NCBI GenBank assembly: GCA_028693445.1
Contig: JAQUVI010000002.1
Location: 130,971 to 194,970 of the forward strand
Length of the DNA stretch: 64,000 nucleotides
Origin: Candidatus Absconditabacteria bacterium
GTDB lineage: Bacteria; Patescibacteriota; Gracilibacteria; Absconditabacterales; Absconditicoccaceae
Direction: 5' to 3'
Part shown: one piece after another, positions 607 through 62,885 of the stretch
How positions within the stretch are numbered: the stretch's first letter is position 1
How the letters are laid out: the number at the start of each line of letters is the position of its first letter
Made by a program: the position numbers and the translations under genes
The notes under the pieces: model-generated
What the model was told of the DNA's origin: nothing
Seen by the model: the letters and a program-made list of their open reading frames with translations, nothing else
The model's database searches: none

Positions 607-3600
607 TTATTTTTTAGGATTGTTTTTGTTTATATGATCTTGAAGTATTTTTAATGTATCAAATAATTTTGGTACAACCATATTATATGATCAGAATTTT
701 CCTGTTGTTGTTTTAAATAAATTATAAATTTTACCATTTGGTGCTTTATATGGTGATGTACTTCGAGAATTATCCACTGTGTAGTTTAGAGAATTTCAAG
801 GATTGTTTTTATCAATAAATTCTTCTATATCTTTTTTGCTAGCAAAGTATTTTGTTTGATTTGAAACACTAAAATTTATTGAAGAATATCATAATCATGC
901 TTTATAAGCTACTGAATATTTTTTACCATTTGGTGCTGTATATATATAATCTTGATTATTGTTTATATCTTCTACTAAACGATCATATATATAACGTAAT
1001 TTTGCTATTTCTTTTGCACTAGCTCATTCTTCTTCTAATTCGTCTATTTTTTCTTCCATCATATCTTTTAATGTTTTTTTAAGATTATTATCTAAATTTT
1101 CTATTAATAAATATAATCATTCTAATTCTATTATTTCATTTACTGATAGATCAAAATCATCATCTTCGTCATCATAATCAGAGCTTTTTTCTGTTATTAA
1201 TTTGAATACGGCAGCTTGATCTGCTATAGTTAATGTTGATGTTGTAACCTCGTAATATTCTTCACTAGATCTTAATTCTATATAAAGAACATCTCAATTT
1301 TTTACTAAAGATTGTTTGTTTATATTTGCTCAATTTACGAATAATGTTCATTCATCTATACTTGCTGTAACCAAGGTATGAGTACTTAATCAAGATATAA
1401 CAATTGAATTTGATCTGTATATTGTATCTCTTTCTACATCAGTTTGTCTAGAAAAAGTAAATTGTTCTGGTGATGTATCTGGAATACCTGTATAATTAAA
1501 CATAGCAGATTCTGATCGATTACTATTGTTGCCTATATAATCTATTGCTTGCACTTTTATTGTAAAAGTTCATTGCAATCATAATTCCATATTTTCTATT
1601 GTTATTGATGGATTTGTTCATGTTCAGGATTTTATAGTTGTTGTTCATTGTTGTATTGTATAAATATATTCTTTGACTCAAGCTCAATCATCTGTGGATT
1701 CTGGCCGTGTTAAAACAATACTTCATGTATAATTTTGATTATTTATATTTGTGAGATTTGGTTTACTTGGTGGTGTTGTGTCAAAAATCACAGTTTGTTG
1801 TGAATATATTTTTGCTCAAACAGGATCTTCAAACTCTATATAAATATTTTTTTGTCATTCTCATGGAGTAAGCGTTATTGGTGTTGATCTATTTCAAGCA
1901 AGTATTTGTTCATTTATTATTGCTAAATTATTTGGTCAAACAATATTTCATGTTATTGTTGCCTTTGTTATGTTGTTTATATTTGTTTCTAGTGTTATAT
2001 TTCATGTTTTAGTATAATTTACGTTTGCTACATTTATAACTCATCACAAACTAATTTGTCATGTGAGAGGAACCTCTAATATTAATGGAAATATTGGAGA
2101 TTTGGTTTTGTTTCAAGCTTTATCAAAAATAGTTACTTGTCGTTCATATGTTCAATTATTTAAATTTGTTATAGTTTTATTTGTGTTTGTTGTGAAAAAA
2201 CCTGTAAAAAAGGCACCATAACTATCTCCAGATAATGTAAATTCATATCATGAAAAATATCAATCATATCAAGTCCATGAAAAGATAACTGTGCTGTTTC
2301 AAGTTATAATTTTTCAACTTAAGGGTGAAGTTAGGTTGATAGTTGGTAATGTTGTATCTATAATAAAATTTACTTGTGTGCTATTACCAGCTTCATCAGA
2401 TGCTATTATTTGATACAAAGCTTCTCATCATTGAAGATTTACTACATAAGGAGATATTTGATGTCATGTTTCTAAAGTTATTATTCAATTTCTTTTTACA
2501 GTTATATTATATATTGGTTCTCAGCTTTCATCTACAATAATTGGCGCAGGATTTGGAATGTTTTTGTAATATCAACTATTTGTTATATTATGTATTTGTG
2601 GAGAAGTTTGATCTATTACTATTGTTTGTACAGGTGAACATCACACATTTCCTGCTATATCATACGCACAAACTTGTGCTCTATATTGATTATTTACTTG
2701 TATACCTGTTTGAGTGTAAGATGTATTTGTTCAACTATATACAATATTGTTGTTCATAGAAAAAGTATAATGTTTTATCATCCAATTTGATTTGTTTATA
2801 TTGCTTCGTGAATAAACAATATTTCATGTGCTATTTCTTCTTCATCATAAAGGATTTAATGATAGACTAGGAACTGTTTTATCAATATAAAAATTGAAAA
2901 TACCAGTTCATATCTCGTTGTCTTGAGTTTTATATCACAAATAAACTTTTAGGTTTCATGTATTTCCGTTGTTTCGATTTATTGTTTTTGTTATTGTTTG
3001 TCATATATCTAAGTTTGTATAATTTCATGATTCGATAAAATGTGTTGCTCAAGTTGTTCATGTGTATATAGAATAATCAAATGATTTATTTCATGAAAAA
3101 AGTATTGTAGGATTTTCATTTGTATAGCCAGTATTTCATAATATATATGCTGTTGTGCCTGTAAAAATGCTATTTAATTTGTTGAAAGTAAATCTAGGGA
3201 TTGATCATGTTGAAATATTTCCTGCTTTGTCTTGTATTTCTATTTTTCGATTATATATTCATTTATCTACATTTATTAGTGTGACTCATGTATTGCCTGC
3301 AATAACTTCTCAAGATGTAATTAGAATTGTTCAGCTATAAAGATAATATTTTTGTGATTGGATTCTTGTTGTATTTTCATTTATTTGTCGAGATAATTTT
3401 AATGAAGTATTTGTATAAGTTGATCAACTAGCTGGTTGTAAATTGGTTATAGATGGAGGAGTTGTGTCTATTTCAAAAGAAATTCCAGTTTGATTTCAAG
3501 CCCAATCTTTTGCTATGATATTGTAAATTCATTCAATAGGAAAAGTACTATCATAATAATCAATTCATCAACTCAAAAACAATGCTTCGTTGAATATTCC

Positions 3601-4464
3601 AGATAAGTTTGTATCAAAAATTTGAATTCTGATTCATGTGTTGTATAAGCCGTTATTTTCTATTGATACTCATAATTTTGTACCTGTAATTATTGGTGAA
3701 ATGTCATCATGAATAATTGTGTTTTTTGTATGATTTATTATATTGTAAGTCTCATAAAATAATGTATCTATTTCGTTTTCATTGTTGATATTTTCTAATA
3801 TTATAGCATAGTTCTCATTATCTGTTCAAGTAATTTTTCAAGTTAATTCTGTATTTATATCTCATGTTATTGAATAATACATGTTTGTATTAGAACTATT
3901 TTCTAGATATATATTTGTTGATGGAGTTGTGGTATATTTTTGTAGTCAGACACGATTATTATGATAATATATGTTATCTATGATGCTATATTTTGTATTT
4001 GTAAAATCAATCATACCCAAAAAATCTACATCTCAATTTCATAATATAGCTATACAATTACCGCTAAGAAATGTTTTATCTATTACAGCAAATTTTCATC
4101 AATTAAGTATATATATTGTGTTTTCTGTTATAATTTGTGGTAATACTTGTATGTTTTCGTTGCTTCCTGTTATTATTATAAAATTTATTAGTTCTTTTAT
4201 ACAAGAACTTTCATATCAACTCATTTTTTTTGTATAAGCAGTTGTTCAGCTATATAATGCATCGAAAACATCTCCAGTTGTAGGAGTTTGATCTCGAAAA
4301 GTATTGTCTATATAATTATTTGTGTCTCGTACCAATCAAGGTTCTTCTCGAGCAGAAGTTGATTTAATTAATAAACCTATAGCAATACAAGTAATTGCTA
4401 TTATTATAATATGTTGTACAAACATTAGTTTTTTTAAATGTTCTTTTCGTTTGATCTTTTTCAT
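607..4464 (-). CDS. Large surface protein with Ig-like repeats and duplicated C-terminal domain
   Basis: About 1,285 aa with TGA=Gly; the frame was sampled at 1201, 2401, 3601 and 4141 without stops. The N-terminus has basic residues followed by one hydrophobic segment (about residues 15-33), a signal peptide or membrane anchor. Most of the protein consists of Ig-like modules of the kind 'NGTYxxxVTIFDKAGN' and 'YQIIASDEAGNST', typical of bacterial adhesins. Near the C-terminus is an acidic, Glu-rich helical stretch, then two tandem copies of a roughly 55-residue domain with 'TAPNGKKYSV' and 'KAPNGKIYNL' ending in 'NNPG' and 'NNPKK'. The same domain ends the giant neighbour upstream. It lies 115 bp downstream of that gene on the same strand, so the two may be co-expressed. 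Role as adhesin is inferred. Confidence 0.8.
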
Positions 4465-4579
4465 AAAAACTTCTATTTAATAAAAGATACTTCTATTATA
4501 ATAAGAAATCTTTTTTTAGCTATTTTCTTTTGTTTTGTTGTTGTTTTTAAATTGACATTATTGTTTTTTATTTTGTAGT
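4465..4579 (-). promoter_or_regulatory. Spacer between the two surface-protein genes with a TATAAT box
   Basis: The spacer holds a perfect TATAAT on the minus strand at 4495-4500, about 30 bases before the start codon at 4464. No clear -35 hexamer and no Shine-Dalgarno sequence are visible. The box could give the downstream gene its own promoter in addition to read-through from the giant gene. Confidence 0.4.
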
Positions 4580-7500
4580 TTATCTAGGATTGTTTTTATC
4601 TATATATGATTTCATTTCTGATAACGAAGTGAAATATTTTTTGATTATAAAATTATGTGAACTATATCTTCAGTCAATAGTTTTATATAATTTATATTCT
4701 TTACCATTTGGTGCAATATGTGGTGCACTTACTCGTGTAGTATCTATAGTAACATCTGTTGTTATTGGCTTTGTTGTTGTGTCTTCTTCTTGAAGTTGTT
4801 CCAAAAGTTTTCTTAATTCGTCTAAGAAAGATGTTGTTGAAGTTGATTTATTGCTTTCTGTTGTGATAGTATATGTTGCAGATATTCAATTTGCTATTAA
4901 TATAGTATGATTTGATTCATTGTATGAATTGCTTGAATTTAATTGTATATAAACAATATCTCAATTTTTAACCAAACCAGAATTACTTGTTATTTTTGTA
5001 TCGTTTATAAACAAACTTCATGTTGAAAGACTGATTGGTATAGATGTATTATTACTTAATCATCAAATCACTATTTCATTTGATGTATATAATGTATTCT
5101 TTTTTGCATTTGTTGTTTTTGTGAAAGAAAATTGATTTGGTGTTGTATCTATTATTGTAGTTGTTTGTGCTTGTTGTGGAATTGTTATAGAAACAATAGA
5201 CGATCGTTGACTTAGATTATCAACATTATCTTGAGATTGAAATTTGATAGAAATCCAAGAATTGTATTGTACTTCAGATTTTGGTATATTTAGATAAGTA
5301 ACATCAGTAAATCATTCTTTTACTTTTGTATATTGGTTATTGATCTCATAGTTGTATCATTTAATACCAGAAACATCGTCTGTAGAAGGACTTCGTTTTA
5401 TTATATAATAGTCATTATTTTCAATTTGTTCTGTTATTATTGGAATGCTTGGAGGAGTTTGGTCTATCGTAAACGTATGAGTACGAGTAAATATCTCTCC
5501 TGTGTTTTGAGTTTGTAAATTAATATAAGCTGTTTTTTGTCAGTTGCTTTCTGTGAAATTTCCTGTTATTGTATTGGTTCATTCTGATAATGATAAAGTT
5601 TTGGTTCAATTTAATCATGTAAGTGTTCCTGTACATGCTTTGTTTGTTGTAATTGTTGCTTCAAATATATCATTCATAAATGGGTTACTAGAGAAAATAA
5701 CATTGAATGGTACAGCGTCTCTTGGTTGTGTAAATAATTGTGTTTTTGTATTTTCTTTGTTTCCATGAATATCTTGGCTATAGTAACATATTGTTCTGTA
5801 ATCTGTTGTTGATGGCGTATAAATTATATTTATTGTTGATCATGAAATATATGTTGTATATCAAGATGTTCAGCATGAGCTAGTATTCCAAACTCAAGTT
5901 AATATTTTGTAGTATGCTGTCGTTGTAGATGTGTCTTGATATAACAATTTGAATGATTCATGACTTCATGTTGTAATTGTTGTGATTGGCGCTGTTGTAT
6001 CTATGTTTAATGCGTATGCTTTTATTATTGTAGATCTGTAATTTCCATCAGTTAGTGTAAGTTCACAAAATCATGTTCAAATATTGTTTAATATTGGTTG
6101 GAATGAAATTCGGTTGTTTGTTATTTGACAGTATCATTTTGATCATGAACTTATAACTGCTGTGATAGTAGTATTAAATTCTGGATCTTTTGCATTTGAA
6201 GCATCTCTTCGATCTCAAGTTACAAGCTTGTTTGTTGTATCTGTGCTAATATCAAAATTATTTGCAACTGGATTTATATATGGTCGAATTCATGTTGCTA
6301 TTTGGCATTCGCGTCATGTATTTATGTTGTTTACTCATGTTGCTCAGTTGGCATCTCGTAAATAATAAGAGAATTCTCGAGTACCAGATTTTTCACTTCA
6401 TGTAGTAAATGATTGTCATGTTTGATTTAATATTTCGTTTGTACATCAAGTTCAAGAATATCGTTGATAAGCAAAATTAGTATTACCAGGATCTGATCAA
6501 GTTGCATTGAATGTTATATATACGTTTCAACTAGCGTTTATATAAATATCTTTTGCAGTTGGAATAATATTAAGTCGGTTTCCTGTTGCTATAGTACATT
6601 CACTTCGAAGATTTTGAGCATCTTTTATTTTGTAAGAAAAACCTATGATAGAAGCTTCATTTCTACCTGTTGTAAATGTTTTTCATATTGCTCATGCTAT
6701 TGTTGTTCAAGATCAACAATCTGATGATAGATATCGTTGATATCAAGTATTTGTTGTATTACCAGGATCATATCATGAAGCAGTAAATGCGATTGTAGAT
6801 CATTCGTAACCAGTTACTAATAGTGGTTCTGTAATTATAGCTAGATTTAATCGTTCTATTGTTTGTGTATAAATTTTGTTGTTATTTGATTGATCTCGTA
6901 TTTTTACTTCCAATATTCAAGTAGTAGGTTCATTTTCAGTTTCTATAATTATTTCATTTCAAGAACTTTGTCGAGATCTAGTTGTTGATCGATCTGACCA
7001 AGAAGAGGTATTTGGTTTTTTATATCTATAAATAAATCATGAAATACTTGTTGATTCATCATAACCAGTTAAAGATATATATAAATCTTCAGATTCATTT
7101 CATGTATAATCTGTGAATTCTATTATAGGTGCATTATTGTCTATAATTATTTTTCATGTAAAAATATTGTTTCAATTTACTATTCAAGTAAGTGTATATA
7201 TACCATCAGCTAATCATGTTTGTGAGAAATTCAAATCTCGTTGTGTTCAATTGATTTTTCTAAAATTAATATTGTATATATCTGATACCTCATTTGATGT
7301 TATAAATTTATTTCGTACATGTAATTCATCAATAGATCAATTTAGTTGTCCGTGATTATTATTTCGTCATATAATTGTAGGGTTTGAATTTGTAGGGTAG
7401 TATCAAACTATTCTATTTGTTCGTGTTTGTTCTCAATTAACATAAATATACATATCTGTACCATCATATGTTCGTAGTAGATGATTTCGTTGTCAGTTAG

Positions 7501-10500
7501 TTAGTATTGAAGTAGTATAAGAATTTGTATTGTGTCGTCGTCATTCATCTGTTGTTATTTTTAGTGATCAATCTTTGATAGTTAATCAATATGATCATTG
7601 TTTGTATATAATTGTTTGATTTTCTGTTGAATTAATTTTGATTCGAGAACTGAATGTTAGTCAGGTTAATTTGTTTATAGTACCTATATTTAAAAATCAT
7701 GTATTTGTAGAAAAAGTATATGCTCATCAGAATTTAGAATTTAACTCTCAATATGTTACTCATGATGTTTGTAATGTTTGTCAACTTGCTGAAAAATCAT
7801 GAATTGAATTAAAATATATTTTTGCATCGAATGAAATTTTATCACATTGATTGTTGTTTTTTGAATCGATAACAAAATATATTTTTTCACCAGAATTGAT
7901 TGTTGCTTCTGTAGTTGTATTTTCTGTTAGATCTGATAAGTCTTTGGTATATATTGTATTACTTGTTTCGTATGAGTTTCATTTTTTGATTGTATAGATA
8001 ATTCAATCTGTTGTTGTACAGTATCATGGATTTGCATTTTCTATTTTGTTTTCTATATCTATATTTCAGCTTATATTGCTAGTTCGTTCATATACAAGAT
8101 TACCATATTTATTTGATCAAGGGTATGATTGTCAACTATTTATAAATATGTATTCATAATCTTGTAAAGGCTCGTTTATGATTCGTGATTGTGTCCTTGG
8201 GTTAAAAACAAAATCTCCTGTCGTAGTTCAATTATCTCGGAAATATTTCCAATTATATTCATTTTCAAATTTACCAAAATCATTTGTAGAATCTGTGATT
8301 AAAATTCTATCAAAAGAATATTTTCTAATCAATGTATTATCTTGTCATGTTGTTGTTTTATTTATTAATCAAGATCATTGTGTTGTTTCTCATCATCGGT
8401 TAATAATAAAATTTGTAATTTCTGGAATATATATATTTGAGTAAAGATTAATAAAATTTTTGTCTGATGTGATTTCTGGGAATGGTTGTATTCGTGATGC
8501 CAAGAATCAAGTATGTATATCAACAAATGCAAATAAAATATATTCATTATTATCAAGTTGGATTATACAGCTGTCATTTCATTGTATTTCTTCTTTTCGT
8601 GTATAAATTATTTCTGTTTTATTTCCTGTCAATGCACAAATTCATTTTTGACCATTAACTATTATTTCATTTCCTGTTTGTGAGTATCAAGCCCACAATC
8701 AATTTAAACTATTTCGATTACCTGTAATATTTCATCATTTTCCATCTCATGTAAGATATACTGTAAGATTTGGAAATCCTAGTTGATCTTGCCAATTTCA
8801 AGTAAGGTTTACACAAATAGAAGGTTCTTGATAATTGTCAAAAACTTTGAAAGAATATAAACCTGTCCATTGTATATTGCTTCCTATAGTAAGTGTAGAA
8901 TTTGTTTCTGTAATAAGTATTTCATTACAATCATGTCAAGTATATCGTTGGTATGTTAAATTACTTCATTCATCTAAAGCATTTGCTACAAAGGTAATGT
9001 TTGATCAAACCTCTGCAATATATTCGTAAACTTGATTGTTTGATATTATTGGACCTGTATTTTGCCAAGATATATTATTTGTGGAAATTAATTCTTGTCA
9101 GAAAATATCTCTAGTTTTGATTTCTAGGTTTCCTGTAATAGGTTCTATTTGTGATGGTATTGTTATTGTAAAATTTGATGAATTACTTCGTTGGCTTCGA
9201 GTTGTTGGATTTTGATTTACTATATATCTTCGTTGATATCAAGAAAATTGACTTCAACTATCGTAAAATGTTCAAGTAATTGTAAGATTTTTAGATTCTA
9301 ATCCAGTTAATCAATTTATGTTTTTTATAATAGGTCAATTGAAATCTATTATTATATTAAATCAAGTTGTGTTTGATAATATTATGTTTTGATTGTATTT
9401 TCAGTCGTATGTTCAATTTATAAATGCATCTTTGTTTTCTGTCAAAGATCGATTATATGGTCAAATTTTGTTTAAATTATATTGGTGTAACAATGTGATA
9501 ATGTTTTGTGGTAATACATAATTATAGATATATATTTCATCTATTTTACCTATAAATTGACCGTGTTCTATACTATATCAAATTATTGTATTTTCAGTTG
9601 ATAATCAAATAGATCAATTTATATATTTGCTTCGTATATTTTCTCAATTTTTGTAAAGTTTCATATTTAATCAATCATAACTTCGTCATATATGAGTTCG
9701 TTTATTTGCTTCAATTTCTACTTCAGTATTAAATCGTTGTTGTGTTGATTTGTTTGTTACATATATTATTCAACTAGATAAAGCAATACCATATGAAGAT
9801 CATTTTTGTATGATTGTTTGATTTCAATTTGTGTTTTCTGGATTTATTCGAAAAGCTATACTCATCTCTGAGGTGTTTATCAATCATGTACCAAGGTTAA
9901 CTGTTTGATTGTTGTTTGTAAATTGGAAGGCTCATCATTTTTTACCTTCAATAGTATATTGTGCTCAGCTGTTTGTTGCAAAAGTTTGGTTTTGAGAAAT
10001 ATTCGTTTCTGGTAATTGGTATATTTGTATACGATAATTTGTTGTATCACATAAATTATTTCAACTACTATTTATTTTGAAATACAAAGATTCTGATTCT
10101 GAAATTGTTGTTTGTATTGTTTGGTTTCCGTAAGATCATGAATGTATATTTTGTGTTCATTTTAATATTTCATATTTGATTCCATCTCCACAACTTGCAA
10201 TAGCATCGCTTAGATTGAAATTAATTTCTATATTTGAGTGAAATGGACTAGTTCGTTTTAGTACAATATCACCGTAATCATCACCAGGATTTAATGTGTT
10301 TGATTTTATAAACATACCGTCATATTCTTGTATAGGTGTTGATACAAGTCGTTGTTGACTAACAGGGTCATATTGTAAATCGGTAAAGTTTCATGTACCT
10401 CTAGGTCTCCTTTGATAATTTCGTCATTTATAATTTTGTATTGGTCCAAAATCTGTTTGAGAATCTGTAAGTAATATTTTGTCAAAATTATACATAGCAA

Positions 10501-13500
10501 GAAGTCATGTATATATATTTCAGCTTATGTAGTTTGAATTATTTGTTCAGCTTATAGTTTGTGTTAATCAAGTTAGATTATTTGTTATTATATTTATATT
10601 GAATAAGTTGCTTGTTGGTGATAATAATCGTTGTTGTTGAAATAAGCTTCCTGTTATAGAGAAGAATGTTCTGTTTATATTGATGTTGTTGAACCATACG
10701 ACAACTCTAGAATTTACATTATCTCATGTTTGGATTATACAGTAGTCATTTCCAATCGACTGTGAGTTTGCTGTATATGATGTATATTCTTCACTGCTTG
10801 CACAGATTCATTTTGTTCAAATATTTATTATTGTACCTGTGATAGCTATTTGTCCTGTGTTTGATCATTGTAAATCTATTCATGTTGTATATATAGTAGA
10901 TCATGTGTTTAGTACTTGATCGCTTCGTATTGCAACAAAATTATGACAAGATCAAGATCATTGATTGTCAAAAATTTGATAAGAGAAATATCATGTTGTA
11001 GGAATATCTCTTTTTGTACTATAACTTTCTGATGTTTCTCACGCTATAATTTGATTTATAGGACATCATCAAGTACTGTATCGTTGGTAATTTAGTTGAC
11101 TTCATGTATCTACTCATACAGCATTGAATACAAGTAGCTTTTCTACAACTCAGCTATATTCGGTTATTGTATCAGTTATTGTTGGTCAAATATTGATCCA
11201 TTCAATATTTCCTTCATTTGTCATTTCAAATCAATATTCATCAGTTATTTTTACTGATATATTTGTTATTGTTGGTTCGTCTTGAACTGGTATTGTTATT
11301 GTTGTACCAGTATCTTGATATATTATCGATCATTCATTGATAGTCCAATCAATTTTTGTGCTTGATGGATCTGGTAATATTCCAGTTCGTGAAACCAAAA
11401 GAGCTTGGCTTTCAAATCAAGTTGTTCACAGAAATCAGCTAAATGTAGGAGGATTTGCGTTTAATCGTTTTATTTCACCTGTTATTGTGGTTGTGTTTCA
11501 TATTTTATCTTCAATTATTGCTCTTATAATACGAGATTCTACTGCATTTTGATATGGAATAGTAATTGTTTCTTGTGTAGCATCAATTGTTCAATCATCG
11601 TCAATATCTCGTTGATAACTTCATGTATTTATTCATAATCAAAAATTTTCATTTCGTATTCAAGAAAGTGTAATTCAAAATTTTCATGGTATTTCTATTG
11701 TGTTTCATCCTGTTGAATTTGTTGTTCAATTTACTTCCCAAGATCGTCAAGAGAATAGAGGACCATTAAAATCTTTTCGTATTTCTCATCATGTAGAATT
11801 TGTAGTTCAGTTTTGTGAGGTTGATGTAATAGTGAAATCAAAATTACCTTCGTTTATTGATCAAGATGTGTTGCTAGTCCAATTCCATTTATCCCAATCG
11901 GTTCTATTTAAATTATGTTCGTAAAGAGTAGCAAAATGTCAGCTAGATATTGCTCAACTGTATATATAAAGTTCATCAATCATTCAATTTCGTTGTCCGT
12001 TTGAAGGACTATATCATATATATGTAGGATTTGAACTTTGGGCGATACTTCATTGTAATCATTGAATTTTTTCTAGTTTACCATTTATATATATATGTAT
12101 TGTAGATCAATCATAACTTCGTCAAATATGAGTCCATGTATCGTTTGGAATTTCTATCTGTGTATCAAATCGTTGTTGAGTAGTTTTATTTGTGACTTGT
12201 AGAGTATTGTTGAATATAGAAATACCATAAGAACCTGTTTTGATCAGAATTGTTTGATTTGCTTGATCTGATGTTTTGTATAATCGCATGCTTACACTCA
12301 TAGCTCAAGTATTGTGTAATCAAGTACCAAGATTGATAAACTTGTTGTTTTCTGTAAATTCAATGGCTCATCAAAATTTACCAGTCTGAATATAGTTTGC
12401 TCATGAATTGATTCCAAATGTAGGTGTAGTACGAACATTGTTTGCTATATTTGTTTCTGGACGTTGATATATTTTTATGCGATAATTTGTAGTATCGCAG
12501 TCGTTGTCTAGATTGCTATTTATTCTCAAATATAAATTATCATTTTTTGTGATACTTGTATTTATTGTGTGATTTCCGTATGTACCAGAAGATATTTCTA
12601 TATCTTCGTTAAATAATTTGTATGTTATACCATCACCACAAGTAGAGTTATCGTCAATCAAACTAAGTTCTACTTTGATATCAGCACTTATTGGACTAGT
12701 TCGTCCAAGTACAGCATCTCAATATCAATAACCAGGATTTATTTTATTATTACTGATAAATAGTCAGTCAAATTCTTGTATAGGATTGCTAACAATTCGT
12801 TGTTGACTTTCTGGATGGTATTGTAATCATGTATAATCATTTCATCATAGTTGTCTTCTTAGATACAACCAGTTTTTACCAAATTGAGTTGGCATAAAAT
12901 CTTCTAAAGAATCAGCCAATAATACTTCATCAAAATTATATAATCAGATTAGATTTTTTTCAAAAATGTTAAATTTATCTATATTTGAATTATTTGTTCA
13001 GCTTATAGTTCGAGAAAAACCTGTAAGATCAGTATTTTGAATTGTTGTTTCGAAAGGATTTGTTTTGGAACTTATAATATAATAATTGTTTTCTATGGTA
13101 CCTGTTAATGTGAATAGGGTATTATATCGATTTACTCCGTATCGTCCCAGAACAATTTGTTGGGTTCATCAACTATTTATTATACAATAATCATTTCCTA
13201 TACCTGTTCATAAATAACTTGTAGAAATAGATCATGATGAACAAATTCCTATAGTTCATTGTTGTATAATTGGTCAACCTATATCTATTGTTTTTGTATC
13301 AGATCATTCTAAATCTGTTCATGTATTTCAAATACTAGTTATTGTATCTTCATCAAAAAGTTGCCATATACCAGTGAAATCATGACAAGTTCCGGATAAT
13401 TGTTGATCAAATATTTGGTAGGAGAAATTTCATGCGTAAATAACGTCATATGTTTTTGTGTATGTATCGTTTGTTTCTCAAGTTATTGCGTTTCAGCTAC

Positions 13501-16500
13501 TACAAGTATGTCAACTATATCGTTGATAAGTAAAATCTTCTAGATTATTACCTGTATCGGTAAATCATGTGATTGTAAATGTGATAGGTTTTTCTACTAG
13601 TCATGTATATTCTGTTTCTTGAGCTGTAAGAGATGGTCAGTTATTTATCCATTGGATAGTTCAAGTAGAAAAAGTTTGATATCACCAAACATCTTCTGCT
13701 ATAATTTCTATTTCTCAGATAATTGGTTCGTCTTGGGCTGGTATATTTATTTCCGTTTTTCATGTAAATACAAGATCTCATGTTCATGGAATCCTTATGG
13801 TTCGAGAAAAACCTGTCGTATATAAATCATTTTGATCTATTCATGTTCGTTTTATTTCGATATTTTCACTTTCATTTAAAATTATTTCATTATCAATGAT
13901 AGGATCATCATTATTATCCAATAAACCACTAAATATAGGTCAGCCAACATTTTCTCGTTGTAAATTCACAGATTCTATTTCTTTGAAGCCTAGATTATTT
14001 GTAGCCCTTATTTTTATTGTTTTTTCCAAAATACCACTAGAATTTGGCATTATAGCTCATGTAGGGAAAGTTATTTCGATATTATTTCATGTGTTTAGTA
14101 TTTCAAAATCACCATCATTATCAAGATCTCGATCGTATCATGATGATGAATTTATTGTTATATTTACATCTTCTGGCTCTGATGCGTTAAATGTTCAGGT
14201 TATTGTTAGAGAGTCTCATTCAAATCAAATTGTTCATTCCCATCAGCTAAATATAGGTCAATTAACGTCTGTCCAAATTATATTACCAGTTATATTTAGT
14301 AGATTTCATGCCAAATCTTCTACACTGAATCTGATAATATGAGAAGCTGTGTAATCATAATTTATATAAATAGTATCTCATGTTGATTCTATACTTCAAT
14401 CGTCATCAATATTCCAAATATATGTTCATGTATTAATTCATTTTCAAACGCCTGTAAGTAATATACCAGAAAGTATTACGTCTTCTTGTCACAATACAAA
14501 AATACCAGTATCTGAAAATCATGTTAGTTGACTACCAGTCATAATCCAACTTCGTCAACTAAATTCTGGAGCTGTAAAATCTCTTCGAATTTCTCATGTT
14601 TGTGTGCTATTTCAATTTATTGATCCAGTAAAATCATATCGACCATCGTTTATTCATCAAATTTGATTACTAGTCCATGTCCATCTATCCCAAGCTATTT
14701 TATTTAAGTTGTGTTCGTAAAGTGTAGCAAAATGTCAGCTAGATATGTTTCAACTATAAATATATATTTCATCCAACAAACCTAATCGTTGACCATGTGG
14801 AAAAATATATCAAATTTGTGTTGAATGATTATTTGGTGCTAAATTACTTACAGTATAAACTGTTGTCTCTAATTTACCATTTATGTAAATATCGGCTGAT
14901 TCTCATTTATGACTTCGACCTATTTGAGTTCGAGTATAGTTTGGAATTTCTATTTGTGTATTAATTAATGTATAATTATCTACTACGTGAAGTTTATTTC
15001 CACTAATAATTAATCAATACGATCATCGCTTTTCTATGATTGTTTGAGGTGAATGATCTCATATTTTATATGCTCGTAGACTAATACTCATTTTTGGAGC
15101 GAAAATACCAGTTCATATACTTACATATTGACCTAGAGGATTATCACCAAAAAAATCCAAAGCTCATCAATATTTACCATTTTCAAAATAATTTGCTCAT
15201 ACATTTGTTCATCGATATTGGCTTTTTTGAATTAGATTTGATTCTGGTAACTGATATACTTTGATATCATATATAGCAACATCGCAAAAATCATTTTGTT
15301 TACTATTTATTTCAAAATATATCGAATCTCATGTTTTTATTTTTATTACTTTGCTGTCTGATATTGTAGTTCATAATTCTGGTATTTCTCAGGTATGGAT
15401 TGTTGATGTATTTAATTTAAATTTATATTCTATTCAATTCCCTATACAGCTTTGATTACTATTTGGGTCTAATTCAAAAGAATATTCTACTAGTACTGTG
15501 GAATTTACAGGACTTGTTCGTCAAATAACAGCGTCACCGTATAAGTTACCAGGATTGATAAGTTTATTATCTATAAAAAGATCTTCACCAGTACCAATAA
15601 CTCGTTTTTTATGTAATATATCATATTGTAATCATGTATAAATTGTTTCACCTCTAGGTCTTCTAAGATATGATCGATTTTTACCTGATTGGATAGGCAT
15701 AAAATCATTTTCTGAATCTGCGATTACTATTTTATCAAAATTATATAATCAGATTAGATTATCATCAAAAATATTGAAATTTCATGTGATTGGATTGTTT
15801 GTTCAACTTATAGTTCGTGAGAATCAAGTTAGATTTGTATTTTGAAATTGTAGTACAAATGGATCATCTATAGTATTTATTAGATATGGATTTTCTTTTT
15901 TGCCTGTAAGAGCAAATATTGTGTCGTATCGATTAATTCGGTATCGTCATAAGAGTATTTGGTTATTATATTCATCTTCAATGATACAGTAGTCATTTCA
16001 AATATTAGTTGATGAATATATTATGCTTTGATATTCTAATCATAAACTACAATTTCATATTAGTCAGTTCTTTAAAATGTCATTAATAGTTTGGATTGTG
16101 TATATTGTTGCAGTATATCATCAGTTTAAACTTTCTGACTTATTTCAAAAATCTGGTATAGTTCATTCTTCTACTTCAAACCATTCTCCAGAAAAAATCA
16201 TCATACTTTCTGCTCATTGAGAGTCTTTTACGATTACTTGAAATTTTCATGTAGAAGCATAATCTCTCCCGGTTGTATAAGAAGATCATGTTGCTCATAG
16301 TATTTCATTTCGATTTGTTGTTTGAGCAAATACCTTATCAAAATTATAAAAATTAAATCCAAAAGCTCCTTCGAGTTCATCTTCGAGTTCATCTTCAATT
16401 TCTTCCTCAATATACCATTGGTAGCTAATATCATTGTTTCCTGTATCTGTAGCTATTACAAAGAAAGTTAGTTTATCTTCTATATATCAGGTGATATTTG

Positions 16501-18697
16501 TGTTTCAACTTAATGTTTCCAAAACAGGTCATATATTTGACCATTCTATTTGTCAAGATCGATTGGTTATTCGTCATACGCTATCTTTGACATTTACTTC
16601 CAATTGTCATGTTGTTGGTTCATCTTTTGCTGGGATCGTAAATTCATCATTCATTGTCCAATTTGTTCGATTTGTTCGTTGTCAATCTAGATACCGTCTT
16701 CGTTGATATCAGCTAATTCAATTAGCATCTGTTCAGTTTATAGTTATATTTAGGTCTTTTGATTCGTCTTCGGTTATTCAATCAATACTAACTAATGGTC
16801 AAGATATATCTACAACTATTCTTCCTGTTTTATTTGATGAACCATATGTTCATGTATAATGATATGTTCAATCAATTAATCAAGTTTTGTTGCTTATAAA
16901 TTCTCGATATGGGTCGGTTCATTCTACTATTTTGAGGTTTGATTCGTAGAGTTGTTGAACTTGTTGTGCTGTAAATCATGTGTTGTACATACGTACTTCA
17001 TCTATTACTCAGTTTCGTCATCGACCATTTATTTCATCTAATCATATATAAGCCAAATTATCATTTGGTAATAATTGTCAAACTATATTATATGTTCGTC
17101 ATGATCAATTTGGGTTTGATGGTCATCAATTCTTGTAGAAATTCATAGTTTCTCAATCATATGTCCATGTTATATGAGTCCAAATTCAGTTTTCTAATGG
17201 TATATTAGTATTATGTCAAAACCAATAAGTACTTGGAGATACATAAAACATTCAATCTTTTAGAACTATTCAATAAGAATTTTGTTTTGTAATAATTCAT
17301 TGTGGTTGAGTATTGTCGTTTGTTTTTATCCAAGCTGAAATTGTTATACCAGATTTTTGATTTATTCAAGTTCAAAGACTATAAGATTGACTTCAGTTAA
17401 ATTCAATTGCTCATCAATATTTTCCGTCTTCTGTAAATGTTGGTGGTAATCGTGCTTCTTCTCAATCTGTAATATCGTGTATTTGTATATGATTCCAAGT
17501 ACCATCGCATTGATTGTCTCAACGATTATCTATTTCAAAAAATATTTTTTGTCAGTTGTTTATATTTATTTCTTTTTCTATTGTTACTCATGAAAATCAA
17601 TTATTTAATGTTCTGTATTCTATTAGATTTACTCCAAAAAGTAATCAAGTTGATGATATATTACCAATATATATTATGTATATTATACCATTTCCACAAT
17701 TGTATATATCATCATCTAGTGTATTTACAATTTTTATTTTTCAAGTGAGATTACTTGTTCGTTCTCGAATAATAGGAATATTACTCATTAAATCTCAAGA
17801 TCATGGATGTGCATAGTATTTACCGATATTTGCAAAATTGTATGTAGAAATTGGGTTTGCTCATATTTGTCGAATATTATCGTCTGTATTGTAAGTTAGT
17901 CATGTTAAGTTTGTGTTTTCTTGAGTTATTTCTTCATCTCGTGTACAATAAAAATCTACATTAGAACAACTTCGGTTTCCAGGACAAGAATAAGTTATTT
18001 CGTATTCATCCCATATACATTCGTATTCATAAATACCACAACTAGTATACTCTCAAATAGTACAACCAATTACTTCGTTGATAAAAAAATCTCATATTTC
18101 TGTATATCATTTGGGAAGGCTTTCTGGTTCACAAGTACTGTCCAGCCCAATATAATTAGTTTCGCTTGTACATGAATTACAGTCTTTTTCTGTTTGATCT
18201 GTAGTAAAACATCAGGTCATTGTTGCAGTTGATAAACTATCGCCAAATAATAAATATTTATATCTCCATCAATTTTGTCATTCTGTTCATCACGTAAAGT
18301 CTCTAATAGAATCAGCTAGTGGGATTGCATTGTCATCTGTAGATTGAGAGTCATCAAAATTATTGAAGTAAATTGTATTAGAAATGGGATTACTTGTATA
18401 TGGATGATATAATTTTGTACTTATTCAACTTCGATTTCGTGTAAATTGGCTAATTGGTCAAGAAGCTCAGAGTATTATATTTCCAAAATTTGATGTGGTT
18501 ATATAATTTCATATATTTTTGTTTATCAAAGGGAATTGTGTATTTACAATAGAAAATCATTCTCATCATTCTTGGGCTTTTGTACTTTGAATTACACCAA
18601 AAACTCATAATCATATAAAAACGATTAGTAAAGTGTGAATTAAAATATGTTTTGTATCAAACAATTTTTGTAGGAGATGATTCATCTGCTTTGGCAT
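4580..18697 (-). CDS. Giant adhesin-like surface protein (about 4,705 aa) with LamG-like and Ig-like repeats
   Basis: One reading frame runs from ATG at 18697 to TAA at 4580-4582 (14,118 bp) when TGA is Gly. I translated more than twenty 60-base lines spread over the whole length, and all were open in the same frame. The N-terminus has a hydrophobic segment (about residues 17-37, 'ILIHTLLIVFIGLGVFGVI'). Four LamG/concanavalin-like modules lie near residues 400-580, 1130-1320, 2070-2250 and 2880-3060. Each shows a 'WTHI..SYDG' strand and a closing 'IDEVRMYN'-type motif. Each is followed by a Cys-containing segment and Ig-like domains with 'YQW' motifs. The region after residue about 3,060 is mostly Ig-like repeats, and the last 55 residues match the C-terminal domain of the neighbour ('APNGKEYKLYKT'). 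Probably exported and involved in attachment to a host or surface (inference). Many Gly are TGA and many Trp are CGA, so standard-code tools shred it. Confidence 0.85.
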
Positions 18698-18901
18698 ATA
18701 ATGTGTTTTCTGCGTAAAAAAATCTCATTAAAAATATATAAATTTTTTGAATATAAATACAATGGAAGTGTAAGGTTTTTTGTTTATTTGACTTGACTTT
18801 TTTGACTAAAGTTTCTTGGTAATTGCTTTTGTGTAATTTTGCATTGTAAATCTTTTTGATATTGTTATCATTCGTGCGAATTTTATATCTTATATTATTT
18901 C
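18698..18901. promoter_or_regulatory. Divergent intergenic region between the giant adhesin gene and the PKD protein gene
   Basis: About 200 bp of AT-rich DNA between two divergent starts. On the plus side a TTGATA (near 18855) and TATATT-like box (near 18890) precede the ATG at 18902 by only about 10 bases. I see no gene, hairpin or repeat here. Confidence 0.35.
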
Positions 18902-21427
18902 ATGGTTGATCCATTTTTTCAAAAAGCAGGGCAGTCTCCAAATGTGTGACAACCAGCTCCACAACAACAAACAAATACTCAGGCAGCACAAAAAGTTGAT
19001 GCTGTTTTGAATCAGCAACAGATTCAACAAATACTTCAGCAACAACAATTGTTGCAACAACAATACAACCAGCTTGCTGCGATGCTTCAAAATCCCAAAC
19101 TTCCTGATACTCAAAAACAGCAAGTTTATCAGCAAGCACAGCAACTTTCTGCACAATATCAACAAAATAACAAAAATCTTGAGGCTTTGGGGTACAATCC
19201 AAATCATGTAAACAAGCCAACTGTTGTACAAAAACCTTCTTGATCAAAGTTATCTATGAAATGATTTTTGATATGATGTTTTGTATTATTGATAGTTTTG
19301 GTTTGATGATTGGTTGGTATATTTTATTATCTTATAAATAATCCAGCGCAACTTAGTAGTGTAGGTTTGGATCCAGAAACTACAAGAAATTTATTGCAGG
19401 TTTTTTCTGTGACATTCTTTGGGTTGGTTATTTTCTTGGCTATGTGAATGCTGGTTGTAAACTGATATAGATTGGTAAGTGTAAAGAATAAATCCAAAAT
19501 ATGATATTGATTCTGATTGCTTTTTGGCTTTATATTGTTTGTATGATGAATATTCTTGTGATCTAGAGTTTTGGATATGATCAAAAATATTTCAGTAGAT
19601 TCTGTAGTAGACAATAATAGACTAATAGTGACAAAAGTTTATTTTAAAGAATGATATATAAATTCTAATACTCCTGGTGTTAGTTTGATTGCTCCATCTT
19701 TGATGTCTTTTGAACTTAATACTAGCTATTTTAATGGACAGATATTGCCAAGTTTTGGACAAGCTAAATTTAACCAAATAATATTGGATTGTGGTAATGG
19801 TCAAAGTATACCTATGAATATGTCTACAGCTAAATTTGAATGAAGTTGTATATATTTTAATAAAGGGGAGTATTCTATGAATTTGAATGTTGATTATGTT
19901 AATGTTCCGACTGGTGAGAGAATGCAAAAAGATGTACCAGCATGATCTATTGTTTTTGTTTCTGAGGTTTCTGTAAGTCCTGTTGATTGAAACGTAACAT
20001 ATAATGATGCAAATACAGAAATGATAGTTTGAAAAGTTCCAAGTAAAATCAGATTTGATGCCTCTAGTGTATTTAGAGATTTTTCTTTGCAAGATTATAA
20101 AGTTATTTGGGATGCTGATGGTGATTGAGAAGTGGACAAACAAAATGCATCTACGTTTACTTATACATATAAAAAAGCACAACTTTATGCTGTCACTGTT
20201 AGATTTCCAGATTTGAGTAAATATTGATATGTTTTTCCTTTGAGGGTAGAACAATCTGATGTTCCTGTTTGTGAAATTTTGGCAACAAATACAGAGTGAA
20301 CATCTTATAATTTCAATTTACAATTTTTGGAATCAACTGCTAATGTAGTAGAATATCAATATTTGGTTCTTGATGGTAAAAAAACATTGGCCAATACAAA
20401 ATCTAGACAAACGTATTTTGATTACGAATTTCCTTCTGCTGGTATTTATTCTTTGAAAGTAGAATTTATTACAGATGAAGGTAAAAAATGATCTTGTGAA
20501 AGTGAAGATATAGAAGTATGAGCAACTGATTTTAAGATAAACTATGACTTGTCTTATAAATCTCCTTGATCTCCAAAGTTTACTGCTTTTAATCAAAGTT
20601 GATTGAATACATTTGTAAATAATATTGTTACAATTTCTGAAATACCAACAGTTATCCAATTAAATCTGATTTCTATAATTCCAAATAATCCTCGTGCTAT
20701 TAAAAAAATATCTTTGGATGGTTTACCTATTTTATCTACAGATAATAAAAATTTTGAATTTACTATTGATTCTCCAAATGAACATATTGTAGAAATTTTA
20801 GTTGAAGATTCGTCTACAAATGCTAAAACGGTAGAAACATTTTCTATCTATGTTAATAGAGATTCTATTATAGGTAGATTGATAATTAAACCAGATTCTG
20901 TTTGAACTTCTCCATTTACAGTAACATTGGATGCTTCTACAACAACACTCAATGATCCAGAAGATGAAATTGTTTATTTTACGTGGGATTTTGGAGATGG
21001 TGAAATAAAAAAGAATATTTCTCAATCAGTTGTACAACACGTATATAATTACGATCAAACAAAAGAAAATTGAACATTTAATCCAAAAGTAACTATTACT
21101 ACTAAAAAGTGAATTACAAAAGAAATTCTTTTACCAGTTCCTGTTATAGTAAAAAAACAAACTATAGAATTAAATATTGTTTTGGATTCACATCCTGGAC
21201 AAATAGCTAGAGTTAATGATAGAGTGCCTATGAGTTTAAGTATAAATGGTTTACCAAAAAGAATTTATTGGGATTTTGGTAATTGAAAAATATTGGAATG
21301 TAATGGTAGAGAATGTGTAAGTACATCTACAGTGTATGATACCCCTGGTACTTATACAATCAAAGCAAAGGTTACGTTTGATGATAGACCTGAAGTTGAA
21401 GGCAGTATAAATATAAAAGTTAATTAA
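18902..21427 (+). CDS. Membrane protein with Q-rich N-terminus, three TM segments and PKD-like domains
   Basis: 841 aa. The first about 110 residues are an extremely Gln-rich, probably disordered region (runs such as 'QQIQQILQQQQLLQQQ'). Three hydrophobic segments follow, near residues 119-140, 155-180 and 195-215. The remaining 600 residues are beta-rich and extracytoplasmic in style. They include PKD-like modules with 'TWDFGDGE' and 'WDFGN', calcium-loop-like 'WDADGDGE', and a Cys pair near the C-terminus. PKD domains are usually protein or carbohydrate contact modules on the surface. The gene diverges from the giant adhesin and is followed 27 bases later by gatC. The function is not recognised. 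The combination of a cytosolic Q-rich tail with an external PKD stalk suggests a surface anchor or sensor (inference). Confidence 0.85.
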
Positions 21428-49928: not shown

Positions 49929-50035
49929 CTAGATTCCGGCTCCAATTCCTTAACGCCGGAATGACAAAGCGGTAGATTCCGGCTCCAATTTCTTAATGCC
50001 GGAATGACAAAGCGGGAATGACAAAGTGGGAATGA
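49929..50035. repeat. Tandem intergenic repeats (43-bp unit twice, then 14-bp units)
   Basis: A 43-bp unit starting TAGATTCCGGCTCCAATT and ending CCGGAATGACAAAGCGG occurs twice (49930-49972 and 49973-50015) with three mismatches. It is followed by short GGGAATGACAAAG repeats. Each unit holds the inverted pair ATTCCGGC / GCCGGAAT and can fold into a hairpin. A related sequence lies at 50692-50753. GC-rich for this genome, a dispersed REP-like family. Confidence 0.8.
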
Positions 50036-50038
50036 CTG

Positions 50039-51422: not shown

Positions 51423-51521
51423 ATGTAGACATAATTATCTGTAAAAATTTGTATTTATGTATAGAATTTTATCTATATATCATTTTAATTTACTTAATAA
51501 ATGTCAATATTTTGTATTATT

Positions 51522-51592
51522 CAGGAAGAGTAGGAATCGAACCTACGACACAGGAGTCGGAGTCCTGTATTTTACCATTAAACTATCTTCCT
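51522..51592 (-). tRNA. tRNA with anticodon CCG (reads CGG; nominally Arg, possibly Trp or Gln)
   Basis: A 71-nt cloverleaf. Acceptor AGGAAGA/TCTTCCT, discriminator G73, D arm GTTT-AATGGTA-AAAT, anticodon arm CAGGA-CTCCGAC-TCCTG, variable TGTC, T arm GTAGG-TTCGATT-CCTAC. The anticodon CCG would decode CGG. Bacterial tRNA-Arg normally starts G1-C72 and has A73. This one has A1-U72, G2-C71, G3-C70 and G73 as in the tRNA-Trp at 30108. The D loop also resembles tRNA-Gln/Gly. Given CGA=Trp in this genome, a tryptophan-charged tRNA is plausible; this is inference. The 5' end overlaps the nuclease gene upstream by 15 bases. Confidence 0.9.
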
Positions 51593-51961
51593 ATAAATAT
51601 TGTATTCTACTTTTTTATTTTCTATGCATTGTTTTATCATAGATTCATTTTTATTTAGCGTAGAGGAGTTGGTTTTTATTTCTAAAAAAACTATTTTTTT
51701 TAAGTTTCAACGACTTAATCAATCGAAAACTATATAATCTACTCATTTTCACAAAAAAACCAAATCTTTGTAATGATAAGGGAAATCAGGAAGAAGCGGT
51801 GCTATTTTTTCATTTACGTTTCAAAGTACAACATTACGTGATCTTGTTACAGCATCTTGGCGTTGATTTTTTATTTTGATAAAAAAATAAACTCTTGATA
51901 TTAAATAACCTATGATGAAACCTACTATAATTCATATAATTATTAGAAACTCTTCTCCCAT
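51578..51961 (-). CDS. Holliday-junction-resolvase-like endonuclease (PF10107 type)
   Basis: 127 aa. One N-terminal membrane helix (residues 5-22) precedes a nuclease-like domain: 'RSRNVVLGNVNEKIAPLLPD', 'FPYHYKDLVFLGKGVDYIVF' and 'DGLSRGNLKKIVFLEIKTNS'. The D..ExK pattern (VDYIVFDG and EIKT) is that of the restriction-endonuclease-like fold predicted for this archaeal-resolvase-related family. The C-terminus 'NIYRKIV' is encoded by the first bases of the tRNA(CCG) gene, so the two overlap. The role is probably membrane-associated DNA handling, unproven. Confidence 0.88.
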
Positions 51962-61970: not shown

Positions 61971-62828
61971 TTATTGGCGAATTTTGCTTATTATATCTAT
62001 AATCTTTTTGTTATTTTTTATTTTGTTTCGTTGTTGTTTTGTCCATGGATGATTAATTGCGTGATTCCGTTGTTTTGTTCCTCGTTCTTTTCGTATAGAT
62101 AATTGTCCTGTATCTCTTCGTTCGAAGTATTTAGCTACAAAGTAAACGATAAGCCAAAATGTATTTCCTGTGTGAATTGCAGCAAAAAAGAATGCAATAT
62201 AAGCTATCATTTGTACTTTTTTCCAGTTTTTTTGAAGTTTTTGCATAGCATAATTATTTGAGGTAATTGCGCCTATAGCCAATGTCAAAAGAGCTACCAT
62301 TCCTGATACTATTGCTGTATCGCCTATATTGAAGAATAATGAGAATCCCTGTCTTGCTCGGAAAATTTGCCAAAGCATTCCGTGTGTGAAAAGAAGCCAG
62401 AATGTTGCTATTCCCAATGGTCTTCTGAGTCTCATAAGATAGAGAGAAATGCTATAGATACCATTTTTTAAAAATGGTATAATGTGCTTTGGTATTGCAT
62501 TGCTATTTATTTCTTTTGGATTATTTTTAATTTTTTTTGGAAGTTCTTTGATTATTGAAAGGAAGTATTCCATAGATATCTCCTGAACATTGAGATATTT
62601 TCTTGCCAAAAAAGTGATAGGTTTAATAAATAACACAATAAACAATAGGTTCCATCATCGATTTCCTCGAAATTCTTGTCGTGAAAATCCCGCATTGCCT
62701 GTTGTTGATGCTGCAGAGATAAGTGTGATAATAACTATAACAGGAAGTATATAGTAAATAAATAAGCTACAATGCTTTTCGATTTTTGCCAATGATGCTT
62801 TGGAGAGGAGAGTAGTTAGTTTGTTCAT
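61971..62828 (-). CDS. Ferric-reductase-like transmembrane protein (MsrQ-like)
   Basis: 285 aa from ATG 62828. A TTG at 62885 would add 19 residues. About six transmembrane helices with haem-binding-type histidines in 'LLFTHGMLWQIF' and 'FFFAAIHTGNTFWLIVYF', as in the ferric-reductase-like domain. 'LQKNWKKVQMIAYIAFF' matches the family's 'W..lHrl.Y' helix start. An early segment 'GFS-x-QEF-x-GN-x-GWNLL' carries three CGA codons; reading them as Trp gives a membrane-typical W-rich stretch. The C-terminal cytosolic tail is basic, with CGA and one CGG. Likely electron transfer through the membrane; partner not visible. Confidence 0.83.
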
Positions 62829-62885
62829 AATTTTTGTTATAAATAAAGCGATTATCTTGTATATATATGTCTGGAAAAAAATCAA

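What the first reader, a model, noticed from the sequence alone, without database searches (positions are those of the whole stretch)
4580..18697. A 14.1-kb gene for a roughly 4,705-residue adhesin hidden from standard-code annotation
A single frame spans 22% of the window when TGA is Gly. It carries four LamG-like modules with about 2.2-2.8 kb spacing and dozens of Ig-like repeats. Giant repeat proteins are known in predatory/episymbiotic CPR bacteria, and this one is a strong host-attachment candidate.
Basis: partly seen in the sequence, partly recalled or inferred. Interest (0 to 1): 0.75.

Follow-up and report, generated by a model that had tools for sequence, protein, structure and literature searches.

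The report
Giant surface protein of predatory mini-bacterium
A tiny bacterium with an altered genetic code devotes 14 kb to one 4,705-residue protein that looks like a sticky surface molecule; such giants are already known in its family, but it also carries an unnamed tail domain, shared by many surface proteins of the group, that may fasten them to the cell.

Summary
In detail: window 4580-18697, minus strand, is one uninterrupted 4,705-codon frame with 322 in-frame TGA and no TAA/TAG. It is a real, conserved gene: the finished genome RAAC1_SR1_1 (same genus) has a colinear 3,037-residue orthologue at the same locus.

Two corrections. (1) The code is more than TGA=Gly. CGA/CGG also read as Trp, as published for Absconditabacteria, so 103 apparent arginines are tryptophans; this brings the LamG count to five. 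(2) "Dozens of Ig-like repeats" are not confirmed: no Ig family passes its cut-off. The protein has five diverged superrepeats of 720-935 residues, each carrying one LamG.

Best reading: an exported giant adhesin. Giant concanavalin/FN3/PKD surface proteins are already reported in this family, so the giant is a new member of a known kind.

New, as far as I could find: (a) an unnamed ~50-residue C-terminal domain ("APNGK"), in 1-3 tandem copies at the extreme C-terminus of exported proteins with otherwise unrelated ectodomains, in 24 of 49 family genomes and 0 of 379 others sampled in the phylum; I propose a cell-envelope anchor. (b) Trp codon choice follows strand composition, which explains the giant's CGA richness. 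Export, anchoring and binding are inferred, not shown.

The parts
4580..18697 (-). Giant gene, 4,705 aa (524 kDa, pI 4.4 with TGA=G, CGA/CGG=W)
   Evidence: orthologue in RAAC1_SR1_1
18572..18697 (-). Signal-peptide-like N-terminus (residues 1-42, ...LLIVFIGLGVFGVIQSTKA/QE)
   Evidence: hydrophobic segment at residues 24-36, counterpart in RAAC1; cleavage site is my reading, SignalP not available
16019..18520 (-). Superrepeat 1 (residues 60-893), LamG about 16955-17365
   Evidence: 1:1 orthologue of RAAC1 unit 1, 60% identity
13208..15895 (-). Superrepeat 2 (residues 935-1830), LamG about 14693-15190; absent from the four LamG matches of the frame search
10763..13090 (-). Superrepeat 3 (residues 1870-2645), LamG about 11942-12343
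   Evidence: AF2 model of the unit
8573..10660 (-). Superrepeat 4 (residues 2680-3375), LamG about 9503-9913
5918..8500 (-). Superrepeat 5 (residues 3400-4260), LamG about 7283-7669
   Evidence: 1:1 orthologue of RAAC1 unit 3, 61% identity
4853..5155 (-). Conserved 'DTTPNQFSFT...' domain (residues about 4515-4615), also in the downstream gene
   Evidence: 40% identical copy in the 607-4464 gene; the last 190 residues of the giant are 71% identical to RAAC1 against 46% for 1963-4515
4583..4747 (-). C-terminal 'APNGK' domain (residues 4651-4705), candidate anchor
   Evidence: AF2 mean pLDDT 86
607..4464 (-). Downstream gene, 1,285 aa, hydrophobic N-terminus, Big_13 Ig-like match, two C-terminal APNGK domains (796-966 and 613-774)
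18902..21427 (+). Divergent neighbour: three hydrophobic segments and a PKD ectodomain (about 841 aa from the ATG at 18902); same arrangement in RAAC1 and UBA5124
51521..51593 (-). tRNA with anticodon CCG: called Arg by ARAGORN; A1:U72, G73, no A20, i.e. Trp-type identity elements (reads CGG)
   Evidence: criteria from PMC8629427
30107..30180 (+). Canonical tRNA-Trp(CCA), also A1:U72, G73

Best explanation
The gene encodes an exported, acidic, half-megadalton surface adhesin of an Absconditabacterium (SR1; genus of RAAC1_SR1_1). The N-terminal hydrophobic segment sends it through Sec. Five LamG (concanavalin-like) heads are strung along a beta-rich stalk and bind glycans or proteins of a prey/host cell, or of neighbouring kin. 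A lineage-specific ~50-residue C-terminal domain, shared with other exported proteins, holds it to the cell envelope without a sortase motif or C-terminal membrane helix. SHOWN: the single frame, the UGA=Gly and CGA/CGG=Trp reading, the LamG modules and superrepeats, the shared C-terminal domain, and conservation in RAAC1. INFERRED: export, anchoring, ligand and host attachment.
For: Single frame and orthologue. Five LamG_3 stretches, E=2.6e-77; the nearest solved relatives of the unit are carbohydrate-binding LamG domains such as AbnA domain 4 by sequence and by fold. Code: aligning the superrepeats with CGA/CGG masked, these codons face TGG 40 times and true Arg codons 4 times; across genomes they face TGG 19 times, and TGA faces GGN 86 times. 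tRNA(CCG) and tRNA(UCG) have Trp-type, and tRNA(UCA) Gly-type, identity elements. Anchor: the same C-terminal domain ends LamG, beta-helix, PKD and LRR proteins; all 21 with an intact N-terminus have an N-terminal hydrophobic segment; none has LPXTG or a C-terminal hydrophobic helix; it lies in the best conserved part of the giant. Lifestyle: the ten longest Vampirococcus proteins are predicted membrane proteins, most with interaction or adhesion domains, and another Absconditicoccaceae species has large ConA/FN3 surface proteins.
Against: No binding, localisation or expression data. The giant carries one C-terminal copy where many relatives carry three, so its anchoring could be weak or need a partner (its neighbour has two). 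The LamG fold also occurs in enzymes and structural proteins. The AF2 model of the whole unit is poor (mean pLDDT 57). The superrepeat unit has no counterpart in 21 same-family genomes of other genera, so it is not a general requirement for epibiosis.
Confidence: 0.6

Rival explanations
1. The giant is mainly a structural coat or stalk protein: it builds the fibrous cell surface or glues sister cells, and its LamG modules bind self glycans or each other rather than a host.
For: Fibrous material fills 20-50 nm gaps between Vampirococcus cells and giant proteins are its suggested source; the middle unit varies from 1 to 3 copies, as in length-tuned stalks.
Against: LamG modules resemble carbohydrate-binding domains and the ectodomain evolves faster than the tail (46% against 71% identity), which fits an exposed ligand-facing region at least as well.
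Confidence: 0.25
2. The APNGK domain is a secretion or sorting signal (processed or recognised during export, like a type IX CTD), not an anchor, and the giant is released.
For: It sits at the extreme C-terminus of unrelated ectodomains, as sorting domains do; no ligand is known.
Against: It occurs in 1-3 tandem copies with distinct I/II/III types, more like the repeats of SLH/CWB2 anchors than single-copy sorting signals; the proteins already have N-terminal export-type segments; no Pfam or NCBIfam sorting-domain match.
Confidence: 0.25
3. The long frame is a by-product of base composition, misassembly or a decayed gene.
For: Low GC and repetitive content could suggest it.
Against: Longest chance run is 209 codons; five other frames full of stops; colinear orthologue in a finished genome; differences most frequent at codon position 3, 0.41/0.33/0.48; repeats too diverged to collapse.
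Confidence: 0.02

Closest known systems
Giant membrane/surface proteins of Absconditabacteria (Vampirococcus lugosii, PMC8080830; an Absconditicoccaceae epibiont, PMC13059738)
   Same: Same family or phylum, over 1,390 aa, predicted exported or membrane, ConA/FN3/PKD-type adhesion domains, proposed for host recognition
   Different: This one is 4,705 aa with five LamG superrepeats and ends in the APNGK domain; I did not compare sequences with those two genomes by name
RAAC1_SR1_1 orthologue (CP006913.1, about 543-552 kb)
   Same: Colinear N- and C-terminal parts, same neighbours, same C-terminal domain
   Different: 3,037 aa with three LamG superrepeats: the middle unit is single there and triple here
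Laminin_G_3 / concanavalin-like domains (PF13385), e.g. AbnA domain 4 (5hon)
   Same: Module family, significant by profile and fold
   Different: Ligand unknown; embedded in 720-935-residue units
SLH / CWB2 cell-wall anchor repeats (working analogy only, from general knowledge)
   Same: Terminal repeats, often three in tandem, on exported proteins with varied ectodomains and no sortase motif
   Different: No sequence match; predicted as three beta strands and one helix; wall binding untested
Absconditabacterial genetic code (Shulgina and Eddy 2021, PMC8629427)
   Same: UGA=Gly, CGA and CGG=Trp
   Different: Strand-dependent choice between TGG and CGA, seen here, is not mentioned in the passages I read

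Membership tests
Absconditabacteria (SR1) code: UGA=Gly, CGA/CGG=Trp | UGA and CGR at conserved Gly and Trp positions | tested here: met
   CGR faces TGG 40 times, Arg codons 4 times, within repeats; TGA faces GGN 86 times and CGR faces TGG 19 times across genomes
Absconditabacteria (SR1) code: UGA=Gly, CGA/CGG=Trp | Matching tRNAs: UCA with Gly identity, UCG/CCG with G73 and no A20 | tested here: met
   rules; charging itself not tested
Laminin_G_3 (PF13385) | Profile match above the curated cut-off | tested here: met
   258.6 bits against 27.6, five stretches
Giant surface adhesins of Absconditabacteria | Over 1,390 aa, N-terminal export signal, adhesion-type domains | tested here: met
   signal judged by hydrophobicity only
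Giant surface adhesins of Absconditabacteria | Surface location and binding to a host | not testable with these tools
   needs cells, proteomics or microscopy
Sortase-anchored (LPXTG) adhesins | C-terminal LPXTG, hydrophobic helix, positive tail | tested here: not met
   none, although the genome has one sortase
SLH / CWB2 anchored proteins | Pfam match to a known wall-binding repeat | tested here: not met
   only LamG_3 above cut-off; APNGK profile has no significant PDB sequence match
Bacterial Ig-like (Big) repeat adhesins | Ig-like repeats above cut-off in the giant | tested here: inconclusive
   none above cut-off; beta-rich model but low confidence
APNGK C-terminal domain family (proposed) | 1-3 copies at the extreme C-terminus of an exported protein | tested here: met
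APNGK C-terminal domain family (proposed) | Binds the cell envelope | not testable with these tools
   inferred from architecture only

The most novel reading that the evidence does not exclude
The ~50-residue APNGK domain is a previously unnamed cell-envelope anchoring module specific to Absconditabacteria: tandem C-terminal copies tether exported LamG, LRR, beta-helix and PKD proteins to the predator's surface, and the giant is its largest client seen here.
Probability: 0.5. Interest if true: 0.65.

Novelty: new variant of a known kind. Interest (0 to 1): 0.45.

Why it matters
How epibiotic CPR predators hold and recognise prey is open. The shared C-terminal domain gives a sequence handle for listing candidate anchored surface proteins in a genome of this family, and a small testable module. 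Reading CGA/CGG as Trp changes more than 2% of this protein's residues and recovers a domain, so annotations made with NCBI table 25 alone are wrong for such proteins. The link between strand composition and use of a reassigned codon may help explain how CGA became a common Trp codon.

Tried and rejected
Plain self-BLAST of the giant printed no off-diagonal matches; 300-aa pieces worked. First-pass idea that CGA richness is special to the giant: rejected, since other minus-strand genes in the window do the same (20 TGG: 42 CGR against 38:103, p=0.50). LPXTG anchoring: rejected. PDB sequence search and Foldseek for the APNGK domain: no significant match (best E 0.19, SH2-like fragments, not taken as homology). 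Foldseek hits of the unit to toxin receptor-binding domains reflect the common jelly-roll fold only and say nothing about toxicity. RecG/GatB alignments as an independent Trp check were weakly informative. Conserved intergenic 5' of the giant: conserved with RAAC1, poorly with UBA5124, not pursued. UBA5124's version of the giant cannot be measured because of an NN gap inside it.

Full report
THE FRAME. With TGA as Gly, window 4580-18697 on the minus strand is one frame of 4,705 codons containing 322 TGA and no TAA/TAG. Under table 11 the window has only two ORFs of at least 150 aa. First-order Markov sequences of the same composition never gave a TAA/TAG-free run above 209 codons. N- and C-terminal parts align colinearly at about 45% identity. 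A tree of LamG units pairs the first and last units 1:1 (60-61% identity); the middle unit is single in RAAC1 and triple here, timing unresolved.

THE CODE. The giant holds 102 CGA and 1 CGG. When the five superrepeats are aligned with those codons masked, CGR faces TGG 40 times and genuine Arg codons 4 times. Against RAAC1, CGR faces TGG 19 times and TGA faces GGN 86 times. Reading CGR as Trp raises the LamG_3 score from 224.2 to 258.6 bits and the number of modules from four to five. CGA/CGG=Trp is already published for Absconditabacteria (PMC8629427). The genome's tRNAs agree by that paper's rules: tRNA(CCG) in the window and tRNA(UCG) have G73 and no A20, and tRNA(UCA) has G1:C72, C2:G71, G3:C70 and U73.

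WHY SO MUCH CGA. Trp codon choice follows strand composition. In the window, plus-strand genes use TGG:CGR 56:10; minus-strand genes other than the giant 20:42 (Fisher p=1e-9); the giant 38:103, no different from its strand (p=0.50). Outside the window, CGR share falls with third-position G skew in 180 kb of the same genome (Spearman -0.52, 68 genes) and in 120 kb of RAAC1 (-0.73, 56 genes). Genes were called mechanically, and some CGR in spurious or fast-evolving ORFs may not be Trp, so the size of the effect is approximate. I take it as mutational strand bias acting on synonymous Trp codons; the replication origin was not mapped.

ANATOMY. Residues 1-42 look like a Sec signal. Superrepeats of 720-935 aa each carry an upstream beta domain (locally modelled at pLDDT about 80) and a LamG. 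By sequence and fold the unit's closest solved relatives are carbohydrate-binding LamG domains. The stretches between LamGs are repetitive with recurring 'YQWY' motifs, probably Ig/PKD-like, but no such family passes its cut-off. The last 190 residues are 71% identical to RAAC1, against 46% for residues 1963-4515.

THE C-TERMINAL DOMAIN. The last 55 residues (APNGK.Y ... GxYSS ... YF.S ... YIDKNNP) recur twice in the next gene and three times in a 581-aa protein elsewhere in the genome. A profile finds it in 24 of 49 family genomes and in 0 of 379 other genomes sampled in the phylum at E<=1e-4; weak matches in another family of the class (E 1e-4 to 1e-7) may be distant members. Copies sit at the extreme C-terminus in ones, twos or threes, with distinct types I (two Cys in most), II and III. 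The attached ectodomains are unrelated: LamG, NosD-like beta-helix, DUF4215/PKD, LRR, or short low-complexity. All 21 with intact N-termini have an N-terminal hydrophobic segment (49% of other ORFs pass the same crude test); none has LPXTG or a C-terminal hydrophobic helix. AF2 models it confidently as three strands and a helix (mean pLDDT 86), with no significant PDB match. This pattern is that of an anchor or sorting module; the tandem triplets favour an anchor. Binding is untested.

FUNCTION AND NOVELTY. Cultured Absconditabacteria attach to and consume other bacteria (PMC11452946). In Vampirococcus the ten longest proteins (1,392-4,163 aa) are predicted membrane proteins, most with interaction or adhesion domains (PMC8080830), and another Absconditicoccaceae species has large proteins with ConA, FN3 and adhesin repeats (PMC13059738). 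The giant is therefore a new, lineage-restricted member of a known kind: its superrepeat was found in one of two other members of its genus and in none of 21 other same-family genomes (UBA5124, the other genus member, has a gapped LamG protein at the locus). The C-terminal module and the strand-dependent use of a reassigned codon are the parts I could not find described, in a limited literature search.

Noticed in passing
G000:C1:55619-67285 (L033:619-12285) and G000:C3 (L145:2469-10970): Two further giant genes in the same genome, 3,888 and 2,834 aa; LamG matches fall in both. The 3,888-aa one ends without an APNGK domain, in a '...YNGTLIFTLYN' motif seen in a RAAC1 giant too.
   Followed up: partly
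L091 (IMGVR_UViG_3300031992_004565): An IMG/VR contig carries a 258-aa protein with two APNGK domains next to thioredoxin reductase-, integrase- and DNA methyltransferase-like genes; it may be the flank of a provirus in an Absconditabacterium.
   Followed up: partly
18698-18901: The intergenic region between the giant and its divergent PKD neighbour is well conserved with RAAC1 (including TTTTTTTACGCAGA before the giant's start), a possible shared promoter region.
   Followed up: partly
49930-50036: GC-rich 43-bp tandem repeat (two copies, then a 14-bp unit) between genes.
   Followed up: no
61971-62885: ORF with 1 TGA but 8 CGA and 13 GGN: possibly recently acquired or not a gene.
   Followed up: no
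607-4464 and 4580-18697: The giant has one APNGK copy and the next gene two, in this genome and in RAAC1; other proteins have three in one chain. The two products might complete a triplet.
   Followed up: no
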